Assembly (NCBI GenBank): GCA_963965975.1
Contig: OZ014411.1
Coordinates: 8,495,501 to 8,559,500, forward strand
Reading direction: 5' to 3'
Source of the DNA: Xestospongia bergquistia
Taxonomy: Eukaryota; Porifera; Demospongiae; Haplosclerida; Petrosiidae
Length of the DNA stretch: 64,000 bases
Within the stretch, counting starts at the first letter, position 1, and every line of letters begins with the position of its first letter. The notes under the pieces were generated by a model that had not been told where the DNA came from, made no database searches, and was given only the letters and a program-made list of their open reading frames with translations. Below are positions 951 through 36,151 of the stretch, one piece after another. Made by a program: the position numbers and the translations under genes.

Positions 951-3580
951 ATGTCAACCTCACGTTTTCCATGTTCATATTGTCCAAAATCTTTTTCATT
1001 TAGAAGTGGACTATCTCGTCATATGAAAAAAGACCACACTGAAGAAAAAACTGGAACAAACGATAGTCTTGGTTGCAGCGAATGTGACTCCAGGTCGGTT
1101 TGAATAGACTGTTTTGTGTAATTGACATAATTATTTAGGTTTCCAACAATCTTTGCTTTGATATCACATCTTAAAAGTGAACACAATATGGAAATTAATA
1201 TTGACAAGTTCTGCTTTGATAATTTTGAAGAGTTTAGCACATGGAAAGCAGGGGAAGAGGAGAAATGTAAATCCCATTATGTACAGCACTCATCAAGTCG
1301 AATATATGGAGCTACTAAATATAGGTATCTATACTGCAACAGGTCAGGAAAGGTAAGGGTTCGAGGAAAAGGTGAGCGACAACTTAAGAGCCAAGGCTCA
1401 AGTAAAGTAGGATTATCATGTATTGCATATATGAAGGTAATGGAAGACACAATACAAGGAGCTATTACTGTTGAGTATTGTTCACATCATAACAGTCATT
1501 CCATTAAACTTTCCCACCTTCCTATTCCTCCTGATATTAAACATCATATAGCAGCAAAATTACATGATGGAGTATCAATTGAAAGGATATTAGATGATGT
1601 GAGAGAGACAATGACAAATGGTGAGATTGGACGTGAACAATTACTTTCACGACAAGACATACTCAATATTCAACGACGACTAAATTTAGAGAGTGTGAGA
1701 AAAGATACGAATGATCTCTTAAGCACATGTGCTTGGGTTGAAGAAATGGCAGGAATGTCATACAATCCTGTACTTTTGTTCAAACCTCAAGGCATAGAGC
1801 AGTCAGAAACAATGAATGACCTTGCCAAGGATGACTTTATACTAGCATTACAAACTGAGTTTCAAAGAGATGCAATGATGCAATATGGCAGCAAGGTCAT
1901 TTTAATGGATGCAACACATGGCACCACTCAGTATGACTTTCAACTAATATCCATACTTGTAATAGATGACTTTGGAGAAGGATTACCTGTAGCATGGGCC
2001 ATAAGCAATCGGGAGGATGTCACATTATTGGTACAGTTTTTGAAGGCTGTACATACACGTGTAGGAAATATAGAAACAGCATATTTCATGTCTGATTGTG
2101 CAGAACAATATTATAATGCATGGTCTGGTGTTTTTGGTACCCACAACACCAAAAGATTGCTCTGCATTTGGCATGTTGATCGGGCTTGGAGAACTGCTCT
2201 TAACCAGCACATTCCTAACAGGCAAGAAAGAATAGAAGTATATCACCAGCTTTGAATTTTGTTACAAGAGCGAGAAGAAAGTGAATTCATTGTCAGATTA
2301 CAGCAAATAATGTCCTTTTTGAATGAACGATATGATAACTTTTTTAAATACTTCAACACACACTATGTACCTCATACAAGAACATGGGCTACATGTTATA
2401 GAGTGGGTACAGTCGTTAACACCAACATGTTCACTGAGTCATTCCATCGCCTTTTGAAAGTAGTATACTTAAACAACAAACAAAATCGCCGTGTTGATTG
2501 GCTAATCCATGTTCTTCTTCGAATTGCACGGAATTTAGTTTATGAACAGCTACAAAAGATAGAAAAGGGTAAAACAACACATAGAAAAACAGAGATTCAT
2601 AAAAGACATAAAGCTGCAATGGAGCTAAATCCAACTTTACAACCAACCAATGACAAAACATGGAGAATTCAGTCTTACAATAAAAAAGACACATACTACA
2701 TTCTTAACAAACTATTAGAAAATTGTTCGTGCAAGCTTCATTGCTCAATGTGTCATGCGTGTGTACACATGTATTCATGTACATGTATGGATGCAACCTT
2801 ACATTACACGGTATGTAAGCATATACATTTTCTTCATATGTCAATTAACCAACAAGAGGAAGAGGAGAATATGGAGAACAAAGATGAACTTGAGAATGCT
2901 AACGGTGATTATGAAAAGAAGGATGAACAAGACACAATAGAAAACGAAGACAGAAATGAAGGCGTGGAGTATAATGAAACCGAAATGAATGTGAAAGTAA
3001 CAACAGCTGTGATATTTACAAGTGCACAGTTGATAGCAGTGAGTTTAACACACATGAATATTTCTCTCATGTACTGCAAGCTGATTCATTCACAGACCTC
3101 ACTGCATGTAAGACCAATGTGGAAAACTTGATGCAAAAACTTCTGTCCTTAATACAATCTAACAATGACATTGATGTACTGACAACAGTAAAGGAACATG
3201 TCCAATCAGGTATTTCAGTACTTCAATCGAAACATATTTATTCCGAAAACAAAGAAAATTTCAGGCCTACAATAAATGTCACACCTAATTCTAATCATTC
3301 TAAACAACCTAGATTTTTCTCGACAAAGAAGAAGAAGGAAACAACAAAAAAGTATTGGGCAAAACCAACAATGGATGAACAGGAGAAAGCAAAGTCAAAA
3401 ATGATAAACACAGACATTAAAGTATGTGGTGTATGTTGGCGAGATGAAGACAATACTCATGATGTTCACATATCTTGGATTGAATGTGACTATTGTGGAT
3501 TGTGGGTACATGTTTCTTGTACTAATAACAGCAATATTGAAGATGACAACATATTCACCTGTCAAAATTGTCAATAACAC
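951..3580 (+). pseudogene. MULE transposase: two C2H2 fingers, DDE core, SWIM finger, PHD finger (one stop, one frameshift)
   Basis: The start is ATG at 951. Exon 1 (951-1093) encodes a C2H2 finger. A 45-bp GT-AG intron (1094-1138) interrupts a second C2H2 finger, with phase 2 preserved. The core around 1880-2200 has the MULE pattern: an Asp in LMDATHGTT, a second Asp in FMSDCAEQYY and a downstream CIWHVDRAW block. A SWIM zinc finger (CxC...CxH) lies near 2780-2840 and a Cys4-His-Cys3 PHD finger closes the protein near 3420-3575. Two lesions are visible. An in-frame TGA at 2253-2255 has full coding sequence on both sides. A frame change falls between about 2978 and 3002, after which an intact reading runs to TAA at 3578-3580. 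The transposase would cut and paste the element in the nucleus. It is nearly intact, so recently active copies probably exist elsewhere. Confidence 0.85.
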
Positions 3581-15182: not shown

Positions 15183-15834
15183 TCACAAATGTGGATATTT
15201 GAAACCTGTGTAGTTACTAAAATCAGATGGAAAAGTGTTCCTAATCTTTACTGCACAACTTACTCTTACTCTTTTCCCGAGCCATCCCCAGCACCAACTG
15301 GTTAGCTGGCTGTATGCCATATAGCAGTAATGTCTGCAGGAAATAAGAATGCAACATGAAGCGATGTATAATAATATTATGTGTAGCACCCATACATTTA
15401 AGCACACAGATTGAAACCCTTCATGGTCTGTGATACAATGTATCTCATTGCTACTCTCTTTCATCTTGTCTTTTACAATGTCTATTTCACAGCAACACAC
15501 ACATTCACGACCTGTTGCCATCACTTCACATTGTCCACATTGACACCTACAAAAAGGCAGAACAGTACTATAAATAGGTCTGTATTGTCAAGCCTGGAGA
15601 ATTTACTTTCATATTCCACTGGAGAGTGGGATGGAAGTATTCACCACTTGCAATCGGCTCAAAACTGTATGGTTCTATGATTTCTGAGCCTGTATCTTCA
15701 TGACTGCTCTCTATAGGATCTGGATTTTCTCCCTCAAAACTGGAAAAGGAGCAAGACAGTCTTATTTCACTAGCTGCATAGCTGTCAGCATCATTGGTGC
15801 CAGAAGAACTGGTCGAGTTGTCGCTTTCTTCCAT
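15183..15834 (-). pseudogene. P2X7-ballast-like ORF carried by Kolobok element 2
   Basis: It starts at ATG 15832-15834, just inside the right TIR. The N-terminal part is acidic/Ser-rich and holds EPYSFEPIAS. A +1 frame change then gives SPVEYESKFSRLDNTD. After about 15540 the ORF reads CQCGQCEVMATGRECVCCCE, then HCITDHEGFQSVCLNVWVL, a possible short intron, then WCWGWLGKRVRV, SCAVKIRNTF and YTGFKYPHL before the stop at 15183-15185. The order CxCxxC, CC, CITDH, CLNVW, W-G-LGK, C..xIR..FP, Y.GF is that of the P2X7 C-terminal zinc-binding ballast domain, here complete and without channel segments. The frame change makes this copy a probable pseudogene. The role in the transposon is unknown; DNA or target binding is one guess. 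Confidence 0.72.
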
Positions 15835-16163: not shown

Positions 16164-18955
16164 ATGGCTACAAGTGGAAGTCTTGTTGATAGAAACACAG
16201 GTTAGCTTTCATTGTAAACTCTATCTCATTTCTACATAGTGCTATTCAGCTAGTTAAGTCAAAGAGAGAATCACATCTGGGCATATTAGGTTGATCGAAG
16301 TTACCATCATTAGATTTAGGTTACTTATTGTTAACACTAGTTGTTATAGATATATTGCATTCATTGGGATATGACTGTATTTATAGATATAGTCATCTAA
16401 TAACTTGAAATAAGCACGTGGATAATTGGTAGATACATCTTGAGACACTACTTATTCTTGTTTCTCACATTCCTCGTTTTTCTTTGGTAAATGGTAGATC
16501 AGGTAGCATGCAACTGCCATTCCCCACAGGCTTGAAATCATTTTGTACTTTTGCTCAACTTTTTTGGTCCAGATGTCACGACTATAATATGTACATGCAA
16601 TATGCCTTCTAATCAAATTTGCAAAGTAATTGACAAGATTTACTAGGAATGTTATGTCTTCCCAGTGTAATTTGTACCTATAATAAAATGTAGAGTATTA
16701 TCTCTCCTTATTGTTAATTGTGTAACAAATATCTTATATTTACTTATGCAGATGATGATATCCCACTTCTGAAAGACAATTACGATGATGATGAACCTAT
16801 TTCAGGCAATGAGATCAAATGTGATGTAGAAAAGTTAGATAAATCTAAAATGTTGTTTCGAGGATATTGTATTGTTATTGATAACATCAGCCAACCTATA
16901 CCAACTGATAAAGCCTCCAATCCAGGAAAAGACAATGGCAGACAGAGTATTCCTATGGATCCAATAAGTAATCCAAACAAGCAGAATGTCGAAAATATAT
17001 TTGGTGATCTTTTTGGCTTTCATGTTCAGTATTATACTCAATTGACAGTGAGCGCAATTAAACGATTGTTAAATTTTGTGAGTCAAGTTGATCACTCAAA
17101 GTTTACTGGTCTGATAATTGTTACACTTTGTCGAGGATATGGTGATGCTATCTACTGTGCTGAGTTTGAAAAAACGAAAGAAAAGATTAGCTTAAATGAA
17201 ATTACCCAATACTTTTCTGATGAAAATTGCCCAGATCTCATGGGTAAACCGGTCATCTTACTTCATGATATTTGGCAACAACCTCCTCCTCGTGATAGTA
17301 GAGGTAATACAGGAGAAAGGGCAGTCAATGTTTCTATCATCTCATGTATATACCGTATTGTATGCCATTGTCCTGAAGCCTTACAGAGTGAAAATGGTAT
17401 CAGCTTCTTTCTCAAATTGCTGCGTCAGGAGGCAGAACTCAAAAACGTGTTACTTAAAGATATGCTTGAACGTACTATGTTGAATGTAATGGCAGAACGT
17501 GTTTTGGTAAGGTATGATGGTGATATGAAGTATCCTTTGTGGCCATTACAAGAAATGACACTGAGGTAAGAAGGTATAACTTGTCTAACACAGACAACAC
17601 ATTTACATTATACTTATAAGAAGTCATTGTCGATAATACAGATGCCTTTTCTACTTGCTATTTTATGACCTATTTGCCTTAACCCTGTGTTTAAGTAATC
17701 ATGGCAACCTTTGTCACTGTATGGAATGTTTTTTTATGTTACATACTGTCATCCTACGTGTATATCAGATGTTGTCATTATTGGTCATACTCTAATTGTC
17801 TTTACTTAATCAATGTACTATTAAAGGCATTTTGGACAGTTTATGACTTTTCTGCTAAAGGTTGAGAGTGCTTGTCTAAGTGTTCATTATTTATATACAA
17901 GTTATACATGACATCAGATCATGGTTGAATCCTAAGAACATTTTATATGGATATCTGTATCTGACTTTCCTGAATAGGTAACACTTGTTTTTTTTCAAAA
18001 CATTTTCAGACTTGCAATGCCTTCTCAATGATGCAAACCATTTCTCTCTAGCTCATTCCTAATAACATTAAATTAGTAGTCATTCTCCATGTGAACAGAG
18101 TATTATCATAGTATAATTATATTGCTCGACATATTTTTTTTCTATAGTGAACAAGCACTTCGTCTAGGTGCTGAACTCCAAATGGCTCTTGATGTATGGC
18201 TACCAATGCGGCGCAATGTGATTGAAGAGCTTGAAACAAAAAAAGAAAGAATTGTGGAAGTGTGTCGAAAAGTACGCATATCACGTATTGCCGGAGGAGC
18301 TGCTGGAGTTACTGGGGGGATTATGAGTGTAGCTGGTTTTGCCTTAATACCATTTACTTTTGGTGGCTCACTTCTTTTAACAGGAATAGGAGCTGGCATT
18401 GCTGTTGCTGGTGGAGTCACTGCCATTGGTGCAACAATTGCAGATCTAGTCATCAACAAGAAAGAGCTTCGTGAAGCAAATGATCTTTTGACACTAGATC
18501 GACAACTTTGTCAAGTTATGAATAGCTTGAGGGAAAATATTAGAAATATAGCTGAAAGGATAGCAAGTGAGGACCCACGTGTTAACGTAGAGCAGGTTAT
18601 TGTGGGTATTTTGAGAGGTGGACAGAATGCTGTACGAGTGGGTATGGCTGGCATCAAAGCTGGGATAACTGTGGCTCAGCTGGCTGAAATGGGTGGAATA
18701 GCTGCCTTAGAGGGCTCTGTATTTGCACTTCGACTTACAAGTGTAGCTGCTAGAGGTATTGCTGTTGTTGGTGGTTTGGTGTCAGCATTAATAATACCAT
18801 TGGATATTTATGAGATTGTGTCTAATTCTATTAAACTAAGTAAACAAAGTCCAACTGCTGCTTCAAAATGGCTACAGGAACAAATAGATTTTCTAAAGTT
18901 GCAAGAAGAAGAAATAAAAAAGACTCAAGAAGAAAAAAAATCTCAAGAAGAATAA
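16164..18955 (+). CDS. Gene A: inactive caspase-fold protein fused to an ApoL-like domain (552 aa)
   Basis: Three exons keep frame: 16164-16200, 16752-17565 and 18148-18955 (GT-AG, phases 1 and 2). Residues 13-38 form an acidic cassette (DDDIPLLKDN...). Residues about 49-200 match the caspase p20 subunit: RGYCIVIDN strand, FGFHVQYYTQLTV, a DHS helix end, and CPDLMGKP. Residues about 206-283 match p10. Where caspases have SHG, this has CRG (Arg140), and where they have QAC(R/Q)G, it has HDIWQ (Ile186), so both catalytic residues are gone. The third exon resembles apolipoprotein L: an amphipathic lead, a Gly/Ala-rich hydrophobic hairpin at about 331-385 and a lysine/glutamate-rich end. ApoL-type hairpins insert into membranes. 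It probably acts as a scaffold or regulator in cell death or immunity; this is inference. The Kolobok element ends about 100 bp upstream. Confidence 0.8.
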
Positions 18956-19630: not shown

Positions 19631-23160
<3,530 letters not shown>

Positions 23161-23334: not shown

Positions 23335-23381
23335 TACGCGTTGACGTCCTTGTTTAGTATGTTACGTCGAACGATATTAAA

Positions 23382-24137
23382 ATGGCCTTAATTTACACTG
23401 AAAAACCTCAGTGGTTAGTGAATGCTGTAGAAGCTCGAAATAGACACTTAATAGGAGTAAGAAAAGAAGATCTTGACGACTTCAAGAAAAAAATTGTAGT
23501 TACACTGCTTAACATTGAACCGTTCACAAAAATTGGTCGAAACATAGTCGATATCAATGCTAAAGAATTTTACAATAATTCTGATAAAGAAGATAAGTAC
23601 GTCATTAGGACGGAAAAAACCAGCAGTATGACTACAGCCAAAAATTATGAACTCATGCTAGGAAAAAGCAAAAAATTTGGAGGAGACTTTGGCATAGGGA
23701 TCACCTCAAGCTTTTTCAATATTGGCGCCGGTGTCTCTGCTTCTAGAGAAAAATACGAAGAAAATAAAACAGGAGTCAGGACTTCAGAGTCTCTATCTCA
23801 CGAATATGGTGTAGTACTAGATACAGCAATTATTCCTCCTCATTCAAAAGTTCATGTTGAAATTTGGACTTACGCTGTTACTTACAGTGCCAGGGTCAGG
23901 GTGAAGTTTTCTGCTCCAAAATCTACTTTTTTGAATGTAAAAGTGAAGGCAAGATGTTGTTGTGGAAATAATCCCCTTCTTAAGATAACAGCTTCTGAAT
24001 ACTTACGGCAACTAGATTCAAACCACTCTGTTACACCAATTATAGAAGAAGAAGGTTGGGTTTACATTGAGATAGATACTGAAGTACAATATATTGGAGA
24101 AGCAACAGAGATGAAGAAAACTGTAAACAAACTTTGA
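23382..24137 (+). CDS. Aerolysin-like candidate pore-forming protein 1 (intronless, 251 aa)
   Basis: Residues 1-60 begin EKPQWL and include GRNIVDINAKE. The centre (about 70-190) is dominated by alternating polar/hydrophobic strands: a Ser/Thr-rich TEKTSSMTTAK segment, a glycine-rich FFNIGAGVSAS loop, charged/Ser residues, then PPHSKVHVEI leading to two long strands. This arrangement of strand, amphipathic insertion-loop-like segment, and PPH/N-x-K-V strand is that of the aerolysin/ETX-MTX2 beta-pore fold. A CCC cluster lies near residue 193. No signal peptide is apparent, so it may act in the cytosol or be released on lysis. It shares its whole length with the - strand gene at 26135-26947. 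No homologue was checked; a role as immune effector or venom-like protein is inference. Confidence 0.5.
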   Translation: MALIYTEKPQWLVNAVEARNRHLIGVRKEDLDDFKKKIVVTLLNIEPFTKIGRNIVDINAKEFYNNSDKEDKYVIRTEKTSSMTTAKNYELMLGKSKKFGGDFGIGITSSFFNIGAGVSASREKYEENKTGVRTSESLSHEYGVVLDTAIIPPHSKVHVEIWTYAVTYSARVRVKFSAPKSTFLNVKVKARCCCGNNPLLKITASEYLRQLDSNHSVTPIIEEEGWVYIEIDTEVQYIGEATEMKKTVNKL

Positions 24138-26134: not shown

Positions 26135-26947
26135 CTACATGTCTATAATGTCATCTATAATATCTTTTTTAATCTCAGTTGTCTCTCCAATATACTGCAC
26201 ACCTGCTATTATCATAATGTGTACCCAACCATCATGATCATCAGGCTCAACATAAGGATCATCCTGTAGTTGCTGCAAGGCTTGTTTGGCTGTAATAAAA
26301 ATAGTACTTGCACATAATTCTCCGAAACAAGATCCAACACAGCCAACTCTACGAACACGAACAGAAATAATGTTAGATGACCGTGTTGACATTCTAATTG
26401 TCACCTTGGATTCATAAGTTACTGCATATGTTACTATTCTAACATGTAACTTTGTATGGGGAGGAGCTTTTACTTCACCATCAATGCCATACTCTTGAGA
26501 GAGAGAACGCTCATTTGACTCTCCTACTTCTTGTTCATTAGTTTTTGTTCTAGATGCACTTCCTTTAGCAGAAACGCCTACACCAATATTGAAAAAATTT
26601 GGTTGAAGGCTAAGACCACCTTCGCCACCAAATGTAGTACTTGTCCCCAGTTTTAAATTGTAATTTTTAGACGTTGTTGTGCTGTTTTTCTTTTGCGTTT
26701 TGATTGTAAATTTATCGTCCTCTTGACCTCTGATATTATAAAGTTCTTTGGTGTCAATGTCCACTATACTGCGACCTTTCTCTTTGGGTTCTCCCATTTC
26801 TATTAGCTGATAAATTATGCTATCATAAAATTTTGAAATACTCTCATTTCGTGCTCCAATCAAGTGGTAGCTAGGAAAATAACGCCTCACTGCTGCTTCA
26901 AGCCACGAAGGTTTTTCACTGTAGGCCATTTTTGAATAAAGAGACAA
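26135..26947 (-). CDS. Aerolysin-like candidate pore-forming protein 2 (intronless, 270 aa)
   Basis: This is a paralogue of the gene at 23382 over its full length. Shared landmarks are EKPSWL near the N terminus, GRSIVDIDTKE, a Ser/Thr-rich strand, a glycine-rich FFNIGVGVSA segment, PPHTKLHVRI, a double-strand ending and a C-terminal VQYIGE(A/T)TE. It therefore has the same aerolysin-like beta-pore candidate fold. The frame opens with MSLYSK before MAYSEKPSW; the paralogue starts at the equivalent of the second Met, so translation may begin at 26929. No signal peptide is evident. It faces away from gene B, whose ATG is 217 bp away. The long N-terminal tract of about 60 residues differs most between paralogues. 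Confidence 0.5.
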   Translation of the reverse strand: MSLYSKMAYSEKPSWLEAAVRRYFPSYHLIGARNESISKFYDSIIYQLIEMGEPKEKGRSIVDIDTKELYNIRGQEDDKFTIKTQKKNSTTTSKNYNLKLGTSTTFGGEGGLSLQPNFFNIGVGVSAKGSASRTKTNEQEVGESNERSLSQEYGIDGEVKAPPHTKLHVRIVTYAVTYESKVTIRMSTRSSNIISVRVRRVGCVGSCFGELCASTIFITAKQALQQLQDDPYVEPDDHDGWVHIMIIAGVQYIGETTEIKKDIIDDIIDM

Positions 26948-27164
26948 ATTTTAAATCGAATTGTTTCGAACGCTCTTGTAAGAAAATAGCATATGCTTCT
27001 TATATACTCAGGCGATCACGGAAGTCCACAAGACTACCACGCCAAGTCATGTGCGACAAAAGCTAGGTTCTGACAGGATTTCCGTTATATTAAAAATTAA
27101 CTCTACTTAAAATTAGGAGGGACTGGGAATGTTCACCGACCCTGCCTACTTGTTGACTAGCGAG
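26948..27164. promoter_or_regulatory. Short shared intergenic region between aerolysin-like gene 2 and gene B
   Basis: The two starts are divergent and 217 bp apart, with no other gene between, so the two promoters must be in or overlap this interval. No TATA box was obvious on the gene B side. A bidirectional promoter with co-expression is inference. Confidence 0.5.
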
Positions 27165-30100: not shown

Positions 30101-33100
30101 TATGTTTGCACTGACTGACTTTGTACCTTAAGCAACATAAATAACTTTGTTATTATATGAGATAATGATATGGGACTTTCACTGATGTATATTGTACATG
30201 GTGAAGTGGGTGTTGTGTAAGAAAATTAGTTTCATTACATGTAGGGAGATATTGAAGTAACAAAACTCAATACAATGTCAATGACATACCTTACAACTAC
30301 CTAATATATCCTTAAAATATCATACCTTGGAGCTAGCTATTACTGCATTGATATTGTAGCTGGTCAAGCACTGTTTATCCTTTATGTCTTTTTAATTCTT
30401 TTATATTATCCTATTTAAATTACAATTCATATTGTTATCTTCAATCAATATGGATTAGATTATATATATCTTATTACACATTCCATCATATTACACTTGT
30501 CTTATTAATGAAGTACAAAGTCAGTACAATCACACTGTATCCATTTAGGCTTTATAGGAATGAGCCTTTGTGTTGTGTAGCACATGTACCCCTTATTAAA
30601 ACAGTCAAAACTCCATATAATAAAATAATAATAAACAATTTGATTTATATATACCGAGCATTTAACCTCTATGTTTAATTGCAGGACATTATTATAAGTT
30701 GTTAGAGGAATTGTAGTATCCCTTTAGTTTGACATGTAGTAACAAAATTTGTGTTTGTTAATTGTAGGTGATGAGAATCCATTTATTGATCAAGACCAAG
30801 ACAGTACTGAAAATGAAGTTGTATCACTAGAAGAGATCAATAGTAAGGAATCATTATTAATAATTTATTTCATTGTGAAATGTGGTTGTAAACAGTTGTC
30901 CATATATTTCTGTCAATAGTGACTACGTTATCTGCATAGCTATGTATGAGTAATTTTATTAACAATATTTCCATGTTTTTTGTATGCAGGTGATAATATT
31001 CTAATTGTAAAAGAACACAATGACAGTGATCAAGATGAGCCTGTATCGGTCATAAAAGTCAAATGTAAGGAAGAAATTATTGCATATGTGTAACTAAGTT
31101 AAAGTGTGTCTTAATTTAATAACTTGAACCTGGATGTGTTATAAACATAAAAATACTCAATTCTTTGTGGTTTAAGAATAAAATTAATTCTCTACAATTA
31201 TAATGAAACTTCTCTTTGGAAATTCATAAGAAAAGTGGGCACTTCTATCTTGTAACAGTATCTCATTGTCATGAAATACAGTAGCATTTTTGTACAAAAT
31301 ATCCTTGTCCACTTCTATATACTGTTATCTGCATTGAGACCACTTTTGTGACCTATAATGTTAAAACATACCCATAACTTCTAATGACATTACCACACCC
31401 ATAACAAATGAAGCCATTCAAAATTAACCATTTTTTAATGTGGTTTATTTGTTATGAGATTAAATCTCACTTATGAAGACTAACTATATGGCAAATGTGG
31501 ATCAGATAGTTTATCATTCTTGTTATTGGCAGCAAGGTTTGAGTATTTACATTTATAAAGCATGTGCATTAAATTTAGAACTAGCATATTGGTTTGTTGG
31601 TTGCTCTAAATATGTACCTAGTAATAAGGGTACCTCTTTAATTAGAGTACTCTCAATGTAGTGTAATTAAGGAGCCTCCACTCTACCACTTAACTACACC
31701 TGTAACTCTTTAGAAGCAAGTTAATTGAAATGTTTTTAGTTTTTTTATTATAAGGAATTACTATTATTATTATTAAGATTTATTATTATTTATTTATTAT
31801 TATATTAGTAACATATTGTCTGAAAACCCTACCTTGTTTCTCTACTTTTGGCTTGCTATCTTTATTTATGCTTCATTTTGTTAAAAATTATCATTATAAT
31901 AATATTAATTTCATTTGTTGTTTTGTTATGTATGATAATACAGGTGATGATGATGTTCCACTTGTGAAGGAAAATGATGACAATGAAAATAAGGAAAAGG
32001 ACGTCCAATGTGAAGAAAAAAGGACAAAAGATTTAAAGACTTTGTTTCGAGGATATTGTCTTGTTATCGATAATATCAGCAAACCTAACACAGAAGACAA
32101 AACCAAGAATCCAAGTGAAGCTAAGCCTAATAATGAACAGAGTGCAGAGATGACAGCTTTAAACAAGCAGAATATTGAGCATATATTTGGCAAAATTTTT
32201 GGCTTTCATGTTCAGTATTATACTCAATTGACCGTGAGTGCAATTAAAAAATTGCTTTTCCTTATGAGTCAAATTGATCATTCAAAATTTATGAGCCTAG
32301 TGATTATAATGTTGTGTCGAGGATGTGATGATGCTGTCTACTGTGCAAATTTTGACAAAACGAAGGAAAAGATCGAGTTAAATGAAATAGCTAGCTACTT
32401 TTCTGATGACAGTTGTCCAAGTCTCATGGATAAGCCAGTGATTCTACTTCACGATATTTGGCAACAGCAGGCTTCCACTTTGGAACTTCAAGATATTTGG
32501 CAACAAGCTTCCTCTTGGGGCAGCGCATTGTTTGGTGGTGATGTAAAGAATAACAGCAATGATCTCCCTACCATCTCAAATTTATATCGCGTCGTGTGTC
32601 ATAGTCCTGAAGTTTTCCAAAAAGATGGTGTGAGTTTGTTTATCAAATTGCTGTGTCAGGAGGTGGAGGTAGGACCTGATGTGTCTTTTAATGATGTTCT
32701 CAATCATACCATATCGGTACTAAAATTGGAAGAACGTGTAACAGTGAAAACAATGAAATATTATGGTGATATGGATTATTGTTTCTATCCATTACCACCA
32801 CTCACTCTAAGGTAATTTTAAGTCTTACTTTCTGTAATAGTCAACAACTTATAGTTATGTTTAGACAACACAAAATAAATTGCCTCAGTGCCTCTTTATT
32901 GTACAAGATATTTTTGTTGCCCTTCCCATACTCAGAAGTTAAAAGTAGCTTGTTTTTTCTTCATATGCCATCCACTGTTTCAGCTCATATGCTATGCACA
33001 TGTATATGACCATTTTTGTCTGCTTTTGTATGATACTATCAAAAGCAACAATTAAAATGATACATTAATTCACATTGACGGCCAATTCAGTAATCTATGA

Positions 33101-36100
33101 ATTTTATTTGGCTAACTGTGGGCGTGACTGATGATTACTTAAACATATAAAACTACCTTATTCTTCTGCTAATAGCAATTGACTATTGAATTTATTGTTT
33201 AGTTACATAGCCAAGCTCTTTTTTCATTATTAATATGCTTAACATTACAATAGTGATATTAATTTGCCTGATTACTAATGTTGAGCTTTACTGATAGTGC
33301 TTTAAGGGTTATAAATATCACATTACTTGTTGCAACTCTCTAATCAATGTTTTAGCTTTAGAAGTGCGTTTGTATTGGGTTATTTACAGTGTGTGAAACA
33401 CGGAATGAATTATAATTTGTAACATTATATTATATAATATAATTACAATTGAATGCATGGCACTATATAATTATGTTCTGTATCTGTTGGAGACTATGGC
33501 TCACCAAATATAGGAAAATAGAGCATAATGTTATAACTAAGCAATGTCAAATTATTGAGAAATAAAAAAAAATAACGACATCACATTATTAGAAACAAAC
33601 ATAATATCTACTTTGTAACTGAGTAAACTTGTTATAAGAAACAACTGTAGCATAAAGTTATAAAAAAGAGAATGTAATAACATCACAAACATTACCAGTG
33701 TATGTCATTGAATTGAAAATGTGATGTTTCTGTGTTCAGTTTATTCCTCATAAATGCTCTAAGAACTTCATTGAATTACATTGTATGTGTTTTTGTGTCC
33801 ATTTGACATACCATTAGACTGAAATTACATACCATCAGACGGAAATTGCTGTAACTCCATGTCTACCCTAGAATGTAGTCTACTTGGCATCTGTTGAATG
33901 TATTAAGTAATTTCTAACTAGACAAACTGGTAGCTTCTTTTGTTATTAATTAACAAATGTAACATTGAATAATAAATTATATAAATAGATCACCACGTTT
34001 ATATCATTTAGTATGAGAAAGATCAATATTAATGTGTATGTGTATTTGTACTATGTGTATCTGTATTTGTACTATCTAAAGTTTCTATGGGCACATGTGA
34101 TTGTACTTAAAGGGAAGATAAGTCTATAAAGGTTCGAACCAAGCTAATAGTGATAAAAAGTAATGTGACATGCCCACTTTATGTTATATAACTTCAATTT
34201 CGCTTACAACATCTCTTATAGCTAGACATTATGATTGCTTTTTATAACGTGATGTTGTAATGTTTGCTTAACTATAATTTGACGTATCGTTCAATTCTCA
34301 TAATGTAGCATTATTATGTTTCATTTCTCAATAATGTGACATTAATTTGCTTATTGTATGATGTTATGTTCTTTTTCTTTTTGTTACAATTGGCATGTCA
34401 TCCAAAACTACCTGTAGATTGGGAAGTTTCGTTGTTAAAAAAATTTGAACATTGGATGATGTACGAAAATAAATTACACGAACATTATTACACATTGAAA
34501 TAAATAGGGTTAATAAATTTCATACACACCTCTTATGTTCGAAATTTTTTAACACTTTTACATGAAACTTTTGTAACGTGAAAGTTTCTCGATCTACGGT
34601 ATTAACTTTGTATCATGTTGGTAACAAACTTACCAATTAAATCACTTCATTTCAGGTTTATAAGCATTATACCAATCTTGATAAATAATCTATGAGACTT
34701 TGTAAACATTTCTGAACATTTATAAACCATTAACCTCTTTGGATTACATATTGCATAATATAGAAATCAGATATACACTTCAGTATAGTTTTTATTGACT
34801 TATATTATTTGGTGCTTGGTTTGATAAATTCAGTAGAGACCTTTATCTAGGTATATAACCTATACTTAACTAATGAATAATAATTACATGTCACATTAAT
34901 AATGTGTTATTGAATTGGAAGGCATTTTTCCTTGTAATACAATGCATTAATAGCCAGTATTATTGGAACATTTCAATGTTGGTGAGGGGTGAGGCTGAAA
35001 CTAACATTCATATTAAATATGACAACTATGGTATTTCTCTATTGATTATGTATAGATTTATAAGCATTCATAACCTCACTTTTATTGACACTATAGTATA
35101 GATAATAGAATCATTGTTAATATAATCAGGGTTGGATTCAATTTTGTAGTCTTTCAAAGCATTATTTTATTCAAAGAGCTTTCTTATAGTCTTTTGTATT
35201 TTTTGAATTTGAAAACTCTTAATGAATCATTATCTTTTTATGGGTGTATACACTTAATAATGAAATAAATGAAAGGGTGAAGCTCATAAAGCAGCAGGCT
35301 TAAAAGACGGGCTGAGCCTATCGCTTCTAAAATTGGTGGGGATAGGGCCCCATAGCCCAAATGATTCATACACCTATGTTTGTAAAGTATATACTTAATA
35401 ACATATTTATTTATATAGAGAGGAAGCCTTTCGTCTAAGTGGAGAGCTCCAAATGGCTCTAGATGTGTGGTTACCAATGCGACGAAATGTGATTGAAGAA
35501 CTTGAAGCAAAAAAGGAGAAGATTATAGATGTTTGTAGAAATGTACGCATATCACGTATTGCTGGAGGTGCAGCTGGAGTCACTGGGGGTATAATGACTT
35601 TAGCTGGTTTTGCTTTAATACCTTTTACTTTTGGTAGCTCACTTGCTTTGACAGGTATAGGAACTAGCATTGCTGTCGCTGGTGGAGTCACTACTGTTGG
35701 TGCAACAATTGCAGATCTAGTCATCTCCAAGAAAGAGCTTCGTGAAGCAAATGATCTTTTGACACTAGATCGACAACTTTGTCAAGTTATGAATAGCTTG
35801 AGGGAAAGTATGCAAAAAATAGCCAAAAAAATTGCTGACAAAACTTCAAGGGTTCAGTTTTCTGAAGTTAAAGGATTAGCAGCAGTTGAAGGCTCCATGG
35901 TTGCAGTTCGACTAATGACAGGGATTGCTGTTAAAGGTATTGCTACTGTTGGTTTGTCAGCTGTTATAATACCTCTTGATATATATGAAATTGTGTCTAA
36001 TTATGCAAAACTCAATCAAAATAGTCCAACCGCAGCTTCGGAATGGCTACAAGAACAGATTGATTTTCTTAAATCTCAAGAAGAAGAAATGAAGAAAAGT

Positions 36101-36151
36101 CAAGAAACAGAACATCACATGGAAGAGAAGGCAATGTTTGATTTGTGCTGA
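27165..36151 (+). CDS. Gene B: inactive caspase-fold + ApoL-like protein with a six-cassette acidic N terminus (670 aa)
   Basis: Eight exons join in one frame: 27165-27195, 27367-27441, 28220-28300, 28482-28556, 30768-30842, 30990-31064, 31944-32811, 35419-36151; every junction is GT-AG and the total divides by three. Exons 2-6 are acidic repeats of 25-27 residues; a sixth copy starts exon 7. Residues about 173 onward are a caspase p20/p10 fold with CRG at 262-264 in place of SHG and HDIWQ in place of QACxG, exactly as in gene A, so it is also catalytically dead. HDIWQQ is followed by a duplicate QDIWQQ. The last exon is ApoL-like with the same Gly/Ala-rich hydrophobic hairpin, but about 28 residues shorter than gene A after the hairpin. 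Long introns (28557-30767, 32812-35418) hold repeats only. Likely cytosolic to membrane, immune or cell-death scaffold (inference). Confidence 0.78.
27601..27683. repeat. Perfect 83-bp palindrome in gene B intron 2
   Basis: 40-base arms (27601-27640 and 27644-27683) are exact reverse complements around TAG. Probably a hairpin-forming MITE or a recent snap-back duplication. Confidence 0.92.
28557..30767 (+). other. Large intron of gene B, no further exon seen
   Basis: AT-rich; no additional cassette-like 75-bp segment was found by eye between the donor and acceptor. A decayed copy could have been missed. Confidence 0.4.
32812..35418 (+). other. Large intron of gene B between the caspase-fold and ApoL-like exons
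   Basis: AT-rich, with the MITE-like element at 34410-34601. The equivalent gene A intron (17566-18147) is only 582 bp, so this one has grown about 2 kb. Confidence 0.6.
34410..34601. mobile_element. MITE-like element with TA flanks
   Basis: Outer imperfect inverted repeats read CCTGTAGATTGGGAAGTTTC at the left and the complement of CCGTAGATCGAGAAACTTTC at the right. An inner nearly perfect 19-bp pair lies at 34434-34452 and 34535-34553. TA flanks both ends, as expected for Tc1/mariner-type elements. No coding capacity. Confidence 0.6.

What the first reader, a model, noticed from the sequence alone, without database searches (positions are those of the whole stretch)
16164..18955. Caspase fold with both catalytic residues replaced, joined to an ApoL-like membrane domain (gene A)
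Seen: the p20/p10 caspase framework is recognisable throughout, but SHG is CRG and QAC(R/Q)G is HDIWQ, so His and Cys are both lost. The next exon gives an ApoL-like glycine/alanine hairpin. Known: ApoL domains insert into membranes and some kill cells or parasites; inactive caspases can act as scaffolds (for example cFLIP). Inference: a membrane-acting, non-proteolytic cell-death or immune switch. A pseudocaspase fused to an ApoL domain is not a combination I know from described families.
Basis: partly seen in the sequence, partly recalled or inferred. Interest (0 to 1): 0.9.

Follow-up and report, generated by a model that had tools for sequence, protein, structure and literature searches.

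The report
Dead caspase fused to membrane domain
A probable sponge gene joins a caspase-shaped domain that has lost its cutting residues to a domain related to membrane-channel proteins, and it belongs to a family in that genome whose members sometimes sit behind a working caspase or a kinase, which suggests a cell-death or immune switch.

Summary

It is not a one-off. In the host genome 22 of 25 ApoL places follow a caspase-like exon; in 22 of 22 the joining intron is phase 2 and both catalytic residues are replaced. Upstream of those 22 lies an intact caspase exon in 6, a split or inactive one in 3, a kinase exon in 3, and nothing found in the flanks held in 10, including A and its paralogue B. 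dN/dS of A against B is 0.44 (caspase exon) and 0.28 (ApoL).

Most likely it is a cell-death or immune effector: the dead caspase receives a signal, the ApoL part acts on membranes. Domains, loss of catalysis and constraint are supported by computation; one mRNA, membrane activity and mechanism are inferred. Nine open-access searches listed no paper on this fusion. Sponge identity was not tested.

The parts
16164..16200 (+). Gene A exon 1 (proposed): ATG, 12 codons plus one base, phase-1 donor
   Evidence: Open spliced frame; similar short first exons by eye at two related arrays. No RNA.
16752..17565 (+). Gene A exon 2: pseudocaspase domain
17132..17134 (+). Arg codon at the catalytic His position (CRG for SHG)
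   Evidence: Alignment with 11 active caspases of the same genome
17273..17275 (+). Trp codon at the catalytic Cys position (DIWQQ for QACRG)
   Evidence: Alignment with 11 active caspases of the same genome
17566..18147 (+). Phase-2 intron joining pseudocaspase and ApoL exons
   Evidence: Same phase in 22 of 22 family members
18148..18955 (+). Gene A exon 3: ApoL domain, with stop
   Evidence: Pfam ApoL E 7.5e-19; two hydrophobic regions
31944..32811 (+). Gene B pseudocaspase exon, paralogue of A, same two replacements
   Evidence: 62% identical over the first 177 residues; R and W at the catalytic positions. First exon not found.
35419..36151 (+). Gene B ApoL exon, with stop
   Evidence: PF05461 E 6.7e-12; 75% identical to A

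Best explanation
Gene A encodes a pseudocaspase-ApoL protein, one of about 22 in this genome. The caspase fold serves as a non-catalytic binding or dimerising module, in the manner of cFLIP-L, and the ApoL part is the membrane-acting effector. The input differs between members: in six arrays an intact caspase exon lies just upstream and may be part of the same protein, in three others a kinase exon. Gene A, with no enzyme found in cis, would be driven in trans. Engaging the pseudocaspase (dimerising with or being cut by an active caspase, or phosphorylation) would free the ApoL part to insert into a membrane and kill the cell or an invader. Supported by computation: the two domains, loss of both catalytic residues, the conserved joining intron, co-inheritance, selective constraint. 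Inferred: one mRNA, pairing with caspases, membrane insertion, cell death or immunity.
For: Domains; fold; both catalytic residues replaced in 22 of 22 ApoL-linked copies; phase-2 intron in 22 of 22; pseudocaspase and ApoL distances correlate over 18 pairs, r 0.873, 0 of 9999 permutations as high; dN/dS 0.44 and 0.28 for A against B; intact caspase exon upstream in 6 and kinase exon in 3 of 22; some human APOLs lyse cells and conduct ions (PMC8358165, abstract and outline).
Against: No RNA, localisation or activity data. The ApoL structure is unresolved. Half of the six human APOLs were not cytolytic. Ten of 22 members have no enzyme found upstream. The caspase-to-pseudocaspase linker beats shuffles in only 2 of 5 arrays tested. 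In the most similar linker pair, differences show no third-position excess.
Confidence: 0.45

Rival explanations
1. Membrane scaffold without killing: the ApoL part tethers the protein to organelle or vesicle membranes and the dead caspase recruits partners for trafficking, lipid handling or signalling.
For: Three of six human APOLs (APOL2, 4, 5) were not cytolytic (PMC8358165, abstract); nothing here measures killing.
Against: The family association with caspase exons (9 of 22) and kinase exons (3 of 22) fits signalling to an effector better, though it does not exclude scaffolding.
Confidence: 0.27
2. Decoy inhibitor: the pseudocaspase forms dead dimers with host caspases and the ApoL part is an anchor, so the protein protects cells.
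For: cFLIP can block or modify caspase-8 (PMC11121540, passages); the fold matches cFLIP-L as well as any caspase.
Against: An anchor alone would not obviously need a whole conserved ApoL domain (dN/dS 0.28); an intact caspase in line with its own inhibitor in six arrays would be odd, though cFLIP sits beside caspase-8.
Confidence: 0.2
3. Two separate transcripts: caspase-like and ApoL exons are neighbours but not joined.
For: No RNA evidence; no full-length fused protein in the public set (one hit, pseudocaspase only; a capped candidate list).
Against: Phase-2 GT..AG junctions in 22 of 22; gene A's pseudocaspase exon ends at a donor, not at a stop of its own; correlated divergence.
Confidence: 0.05
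4. Decaying relic of a caspase gene.
For: Catalysis is lost; three of 22 copies have a broken ApoL frame (C1:1275, C1:2066, C7:257).
Against: A and B are open; dN/dS 0.44 and 0.28; public relatives of A at 95, 86 and 60% identity keep CRG and DIWQQ.
Confidence: 0.03

Closest known systems
cFLIP-L (CFLAR), vertebrate pseudocaspase
   Different: cFLIP carries two N-terminal DEDs (recalled) and no ApoL part. No DED hit lies in the window.
APOL1-6 (vertebrate ApoL proteins)
   Same: ApoL domain over the Pfam cut-off, with two hydrophobic regions.
   Different: APOLs have no caspase domain (recalled); here ApoL follows a pseudocaspase exon in 22 of 25 places.
Gasdermins cut by inflammatory caspases
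   Same: Works-like: a caspase-type input coupled to a membrane-pore output.
   Different: Different pore domain, and here input and output are in one gene. Gasdermin was not found in the host genome, but the control was silent too, so its absence is not shown.
RIPK3-MLKL necroptosis
   Same: Works-like for the kinase-headed relatives: kinase signal to a helical membrane effector (recalled).
   Different: Here a kinase exon precedes a pseudocaspase and ApoL in three genes, one of them damaged.

Membership tests
Caspase (peptidase C14) | p20/p10 caspase fold | tested here: met
Caspase (peptidase C14) | catalytic His and Cys | tested here: not met
   Arg and Trp at the aligned positions
cFLIP | caspase fold with lost catalysis | tested here: met
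cFLIP | two N-terminal death effector domains | tested here: not met
   None of the 13 DED hits in the genome lies in the window; the proposed first exon has 12 codons. If the true 5' end lies elsewhere this could change.
cFLIP | binds a partner caspase | not testable with these tools
   needs protein
ApoL | ApoL profile over the curated cut-off | tested here: met
   68.7 bits against 25.9
ApoL | ApoL fold | tested here: inconclusive
   Model pLDDT 55.8, no confident match
ApoL | membrane insertion and ion conductance | not testable with these tools
   Only hydropathy computed

The most novel reading that the evidence does not exclude
A new kind of animal cell-death or immune executioner: a fixed core of a dead caspase plus an ApoL membrane domain, onto which evolution has plugged different enzyme heads (none, a working caspase, or a kinase) through a phase-1 intron. 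It would be a counterpart, built from other parts, of gasdermin and MLKL, with enzyme, pseudo-protease and membrane effector in one gene.
Probability: 0.35. Interest if true: 0.9.

Novelty: new variant of a known kind. Interest (0 to 1): 0.77.

Why it matters
Pseudocaspases are treated mainly as vertebrate regulators, cFLIP and caspase-12, in the review passages seen (PMC11121540). A large family in a probable sponge, with catalysis lost in all 22 ApoL-linked members seen and coupled to a membrane-channel-type domain, would place regulation by dead caspases near the base of animals. It would also offer a membrane executioner in a phylum where one survey did not predict gasdermin pyroptosis (PMC11508797, passages). 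The swapped caspase and kinase exons make a direct test possible: is the pseudocaspase-ApoL core a shared output for different signals?

Tried and rejected
Rejected or disfavoured: decay (dN/dS below 1, conserved relatives); unjoined exons (22 of 22 phase-2 introns); a singular fusion.

Tried without result: the ApoL alignment against bacterial and archaeal contigs and viral contigs (39 pattern matches each, none confirmed). A full-length fused protein in the public set: one hit, P0001, 314 aa, pseudocaspase only (only the 7999 candidates sharing most words were scored, so a divergent fused protein could be missed). The structure match of the ApoL model was not confident (best E 0.31). A weak sequence match of the ApoL exon to bacterial helical pore-forming components (E 0.004) is not relied on. 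Gasdermin: no match, control silent too. Death, CARD and DED hits: none in the window; the Death list is partial, 150 of 983 candidates scored. First exon of gene B not found.

Cautions on counts: genome searches give lower bounds (tool's own statement). The 11 active caspases compared are those I held, out of 99 caspase places; most of the rest were not examined, so how often catalysis is lost in caspases without ApoL is not known. Catalytic positions: 18 pseudocaspase exons aligned, 16 of them scored column by column (two near-identical copies left out), 4 more read from their motifs. The table prints 'H:yes' for three pseudocaspase exons (C1:2059565, C1:2066486, C1:4193078) because SHG occurs elsewhere in them; the aligned residue is Glu in all three. 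The tree holds 16 genome pseudocaspases, 5 of the 26 public ones and 11 active caspases. Paper searches list 12-15 rows each of up to 3,508 papers (13 of 13) and cover open-access text only; domain databases that may list this architecture were not available.

Full report

THE LOST RESIDUES. Against 11 caspases of the same genome that keep His and Cys, gene A has Arg and Trp. Gene B, a paralogue 15 kb downstream (exons 31944-32811 and 35419-36151), has the same replacements.

A FAMILY, NOT A SINGLE GENE. The genome holds 25 ApoL places. In 22 a caspase-like exon lies upstream on the same strand within 3 kb. In 22 of 22 the intron between them interrupts the codon after its second base (18, one acceptor of these seen only; four). 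In 22 of 22 both catalytic residues are replaced: His by Glu, Lys, Arg, Asn or Ile; Cys by Thr, Ile, Leu, Met, Gln or Trp. In three of the 22 the ApoL frame is broken (C1:1275, C1:2066, C7:257). The three exceptions are two ApoL genes on C4 with their own ATG (7.7 and 1.4 kb upstream held) and a broken ApoL on C8 beside a kinase frame. The 26 public proteins found with the pseudocaspase profile all lack both residues. One of them, P0002, is gene B itself, and some are over 99% identical to host copies, so they are not 26 species. Relatives of A at 95, 86 and 60% identity keep CRG and DIWQQ.

CO-INHERITANCE AND CONSTRAINT. In a tree of 32 rows one branch (99/99) separates 21 pseudocaspases from 11 active caspases; A, B, P0014 and P0019 form one group (99/99). 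Over 18 pairs, pseudocaspase and ApoL distances correlate (r 0.873; 0 of 9999 permutations as high). dN/dS for A against B is 0.44 in the caspase exon (dS 0.77) and 0.28 in ApoL (dS 0.56); five other pseudocaspase pairs give 0.25-0.57 and two active caspase pairs 0.40 and 0.44. P0021 and P0044, 73% and 80% identical to the C7 pair, are listed with one contig length, 246,565, so the pair seems kept in a second species (inferred from equal lengths).

WHAT LIES UPSTREAM OF THE CORE. Of the 22: an intact caspase exon in 6 (C1:1183763, 1191839, 2043026, 2049995, 2061411, 2074984; the third and fourth are near-copies); one split over two overlapping frames in 2 (C1:2053776-2054659, C1:2068240-2069222); one that has itself lost both residues in 1 (C1:4190751); a kinase exon in 3 (C6:2509837, Pfam Pkinase E 1.8e-32; C7:356218; C7:255826-256491 in two frames); nothing found in 10 (A, B and eight with about 4 to 7 kb of upstream flank held). 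The kinase exons at C7:356218 and C6:2509837 run into the pseudocaspase by a phase-1 intron. Pseudocaspase exons of the caspase arrays also have phase-1 acceptors (read by eye), as gene A has. Whether caspase and pseudocaspase form one protein is likely but not shown. An open linker with matching phases can join them, but it beats dinucleotide shuffles only at C1:2074984 (428 bases, 0 of 500) and C1:1191839 (134 bases, 8 of 500), not at the other three tested (75, 175 and 103 of 500). The linkers at C1:1183763 and C1:1191839 are equally long and open in one frame, but their 31 differences show no third-position excess (13, 10, 8).

THE ApoL PART. Two hydrophobic regions (exon residues 51-102 and 196-225) overlap the low-confidence stretches of the model (43-93 and 165-212; mean pLDDT 55.8), and the fold search was uninformative. 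The assignment rests on the Pfam profile. In human proteins APOL1, 3 and 6 lysed cells, APOL2, 4 and 5 did not, and APOL1-5 inserted into bilayers and conducted ions (PMC8358165, abstract and outline).

HOW IT PROBABLY WORKS. The caspase fold is kept under constraint while catalysis is gone in the 22 linked copies, so it most likely works by binding. The precedent is cFLIP-L, which forms a catalytically productive heterodimer with caspase-8 (PMC11121540, passages). The constant partner is a membrane-type domain; the variable partner upstream is an enzyme. The simplest reading is an output module, pseudocaspase-ApoL, fed by different signals, with gene A receiving its signal in trans. This step is inference.

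NOVELTY. Nine searches of open-access full text listed no paper on a caspase-ApoL fusion. Passages of four papers were read: in three the word ApoL does not occur (PMC8195603, PMC12909245, PMC11508797); the fourth, PMC11121540, was not searched for it. Subscription papers and domain databases were not searched. Pseudocaspases and ApoL proteins are each known, so I call it a new variant of a known kind and keep the bolder reading in the novel case.

Noticed in passing
P0042, matching window 18148-18955: A protein annotated in the snail Gigantopelta aegis (34-kb contig) is 100% identical to gene A's ApoL exon over 175 of its 187 residues; this looks like foreign DNA in that snail record.
   Followed up: partly
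window 23358-24137 (+) and 26135-26950 (-): Two related frames between genes A and B; the second matches ETX_MTX2 (aerolysin-type) weakly, E 4.4e-4, below the curated cut-off. Possibly another membrane-pore protein pair next to A and B.
   Followed up: partly
window about 19635-21070 (+): About 1.4 kb of (TCTA)n tetranucleotide repeat just after gene A.
   Followed up: no
window 15186-15587 (-): Weak match to the P2X7 intracellular domain, E 0.0012, below cut-off, just upstream of gene A on the other strand.
   Followed up: no
window 1131-2255 (+): MULE-type transposase frame, Pfam E 7.1e-10.
   Followed up: no
G000 C11:6283511-6473670 and C12:5395500-5543382: Dense caspase-domain clusters: 20 and 14 of the 99 caspase places in the genome; not examined for catalysis.
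   Followed up: no
G000 C1:2053776-2054659 and C1:2068240-2069222: Caspase exons of two arrays are split over two overlapping frames, so these copies may be damaged or misassembled.
   Followed up: partly
G000 C8:2862042-2863480 (-): A kinase frame lies directly beside a broken ApoL with no pseudocaspase found between them.
   Followed up: partly
G000 C1:1184627-1186120 (L006, L045): The gap between caspase and pseudocaspase exons seems to hold a degraded extra pseudocaspase copy, seen by eye; it would mean tandem turnover.
   Followed up: no
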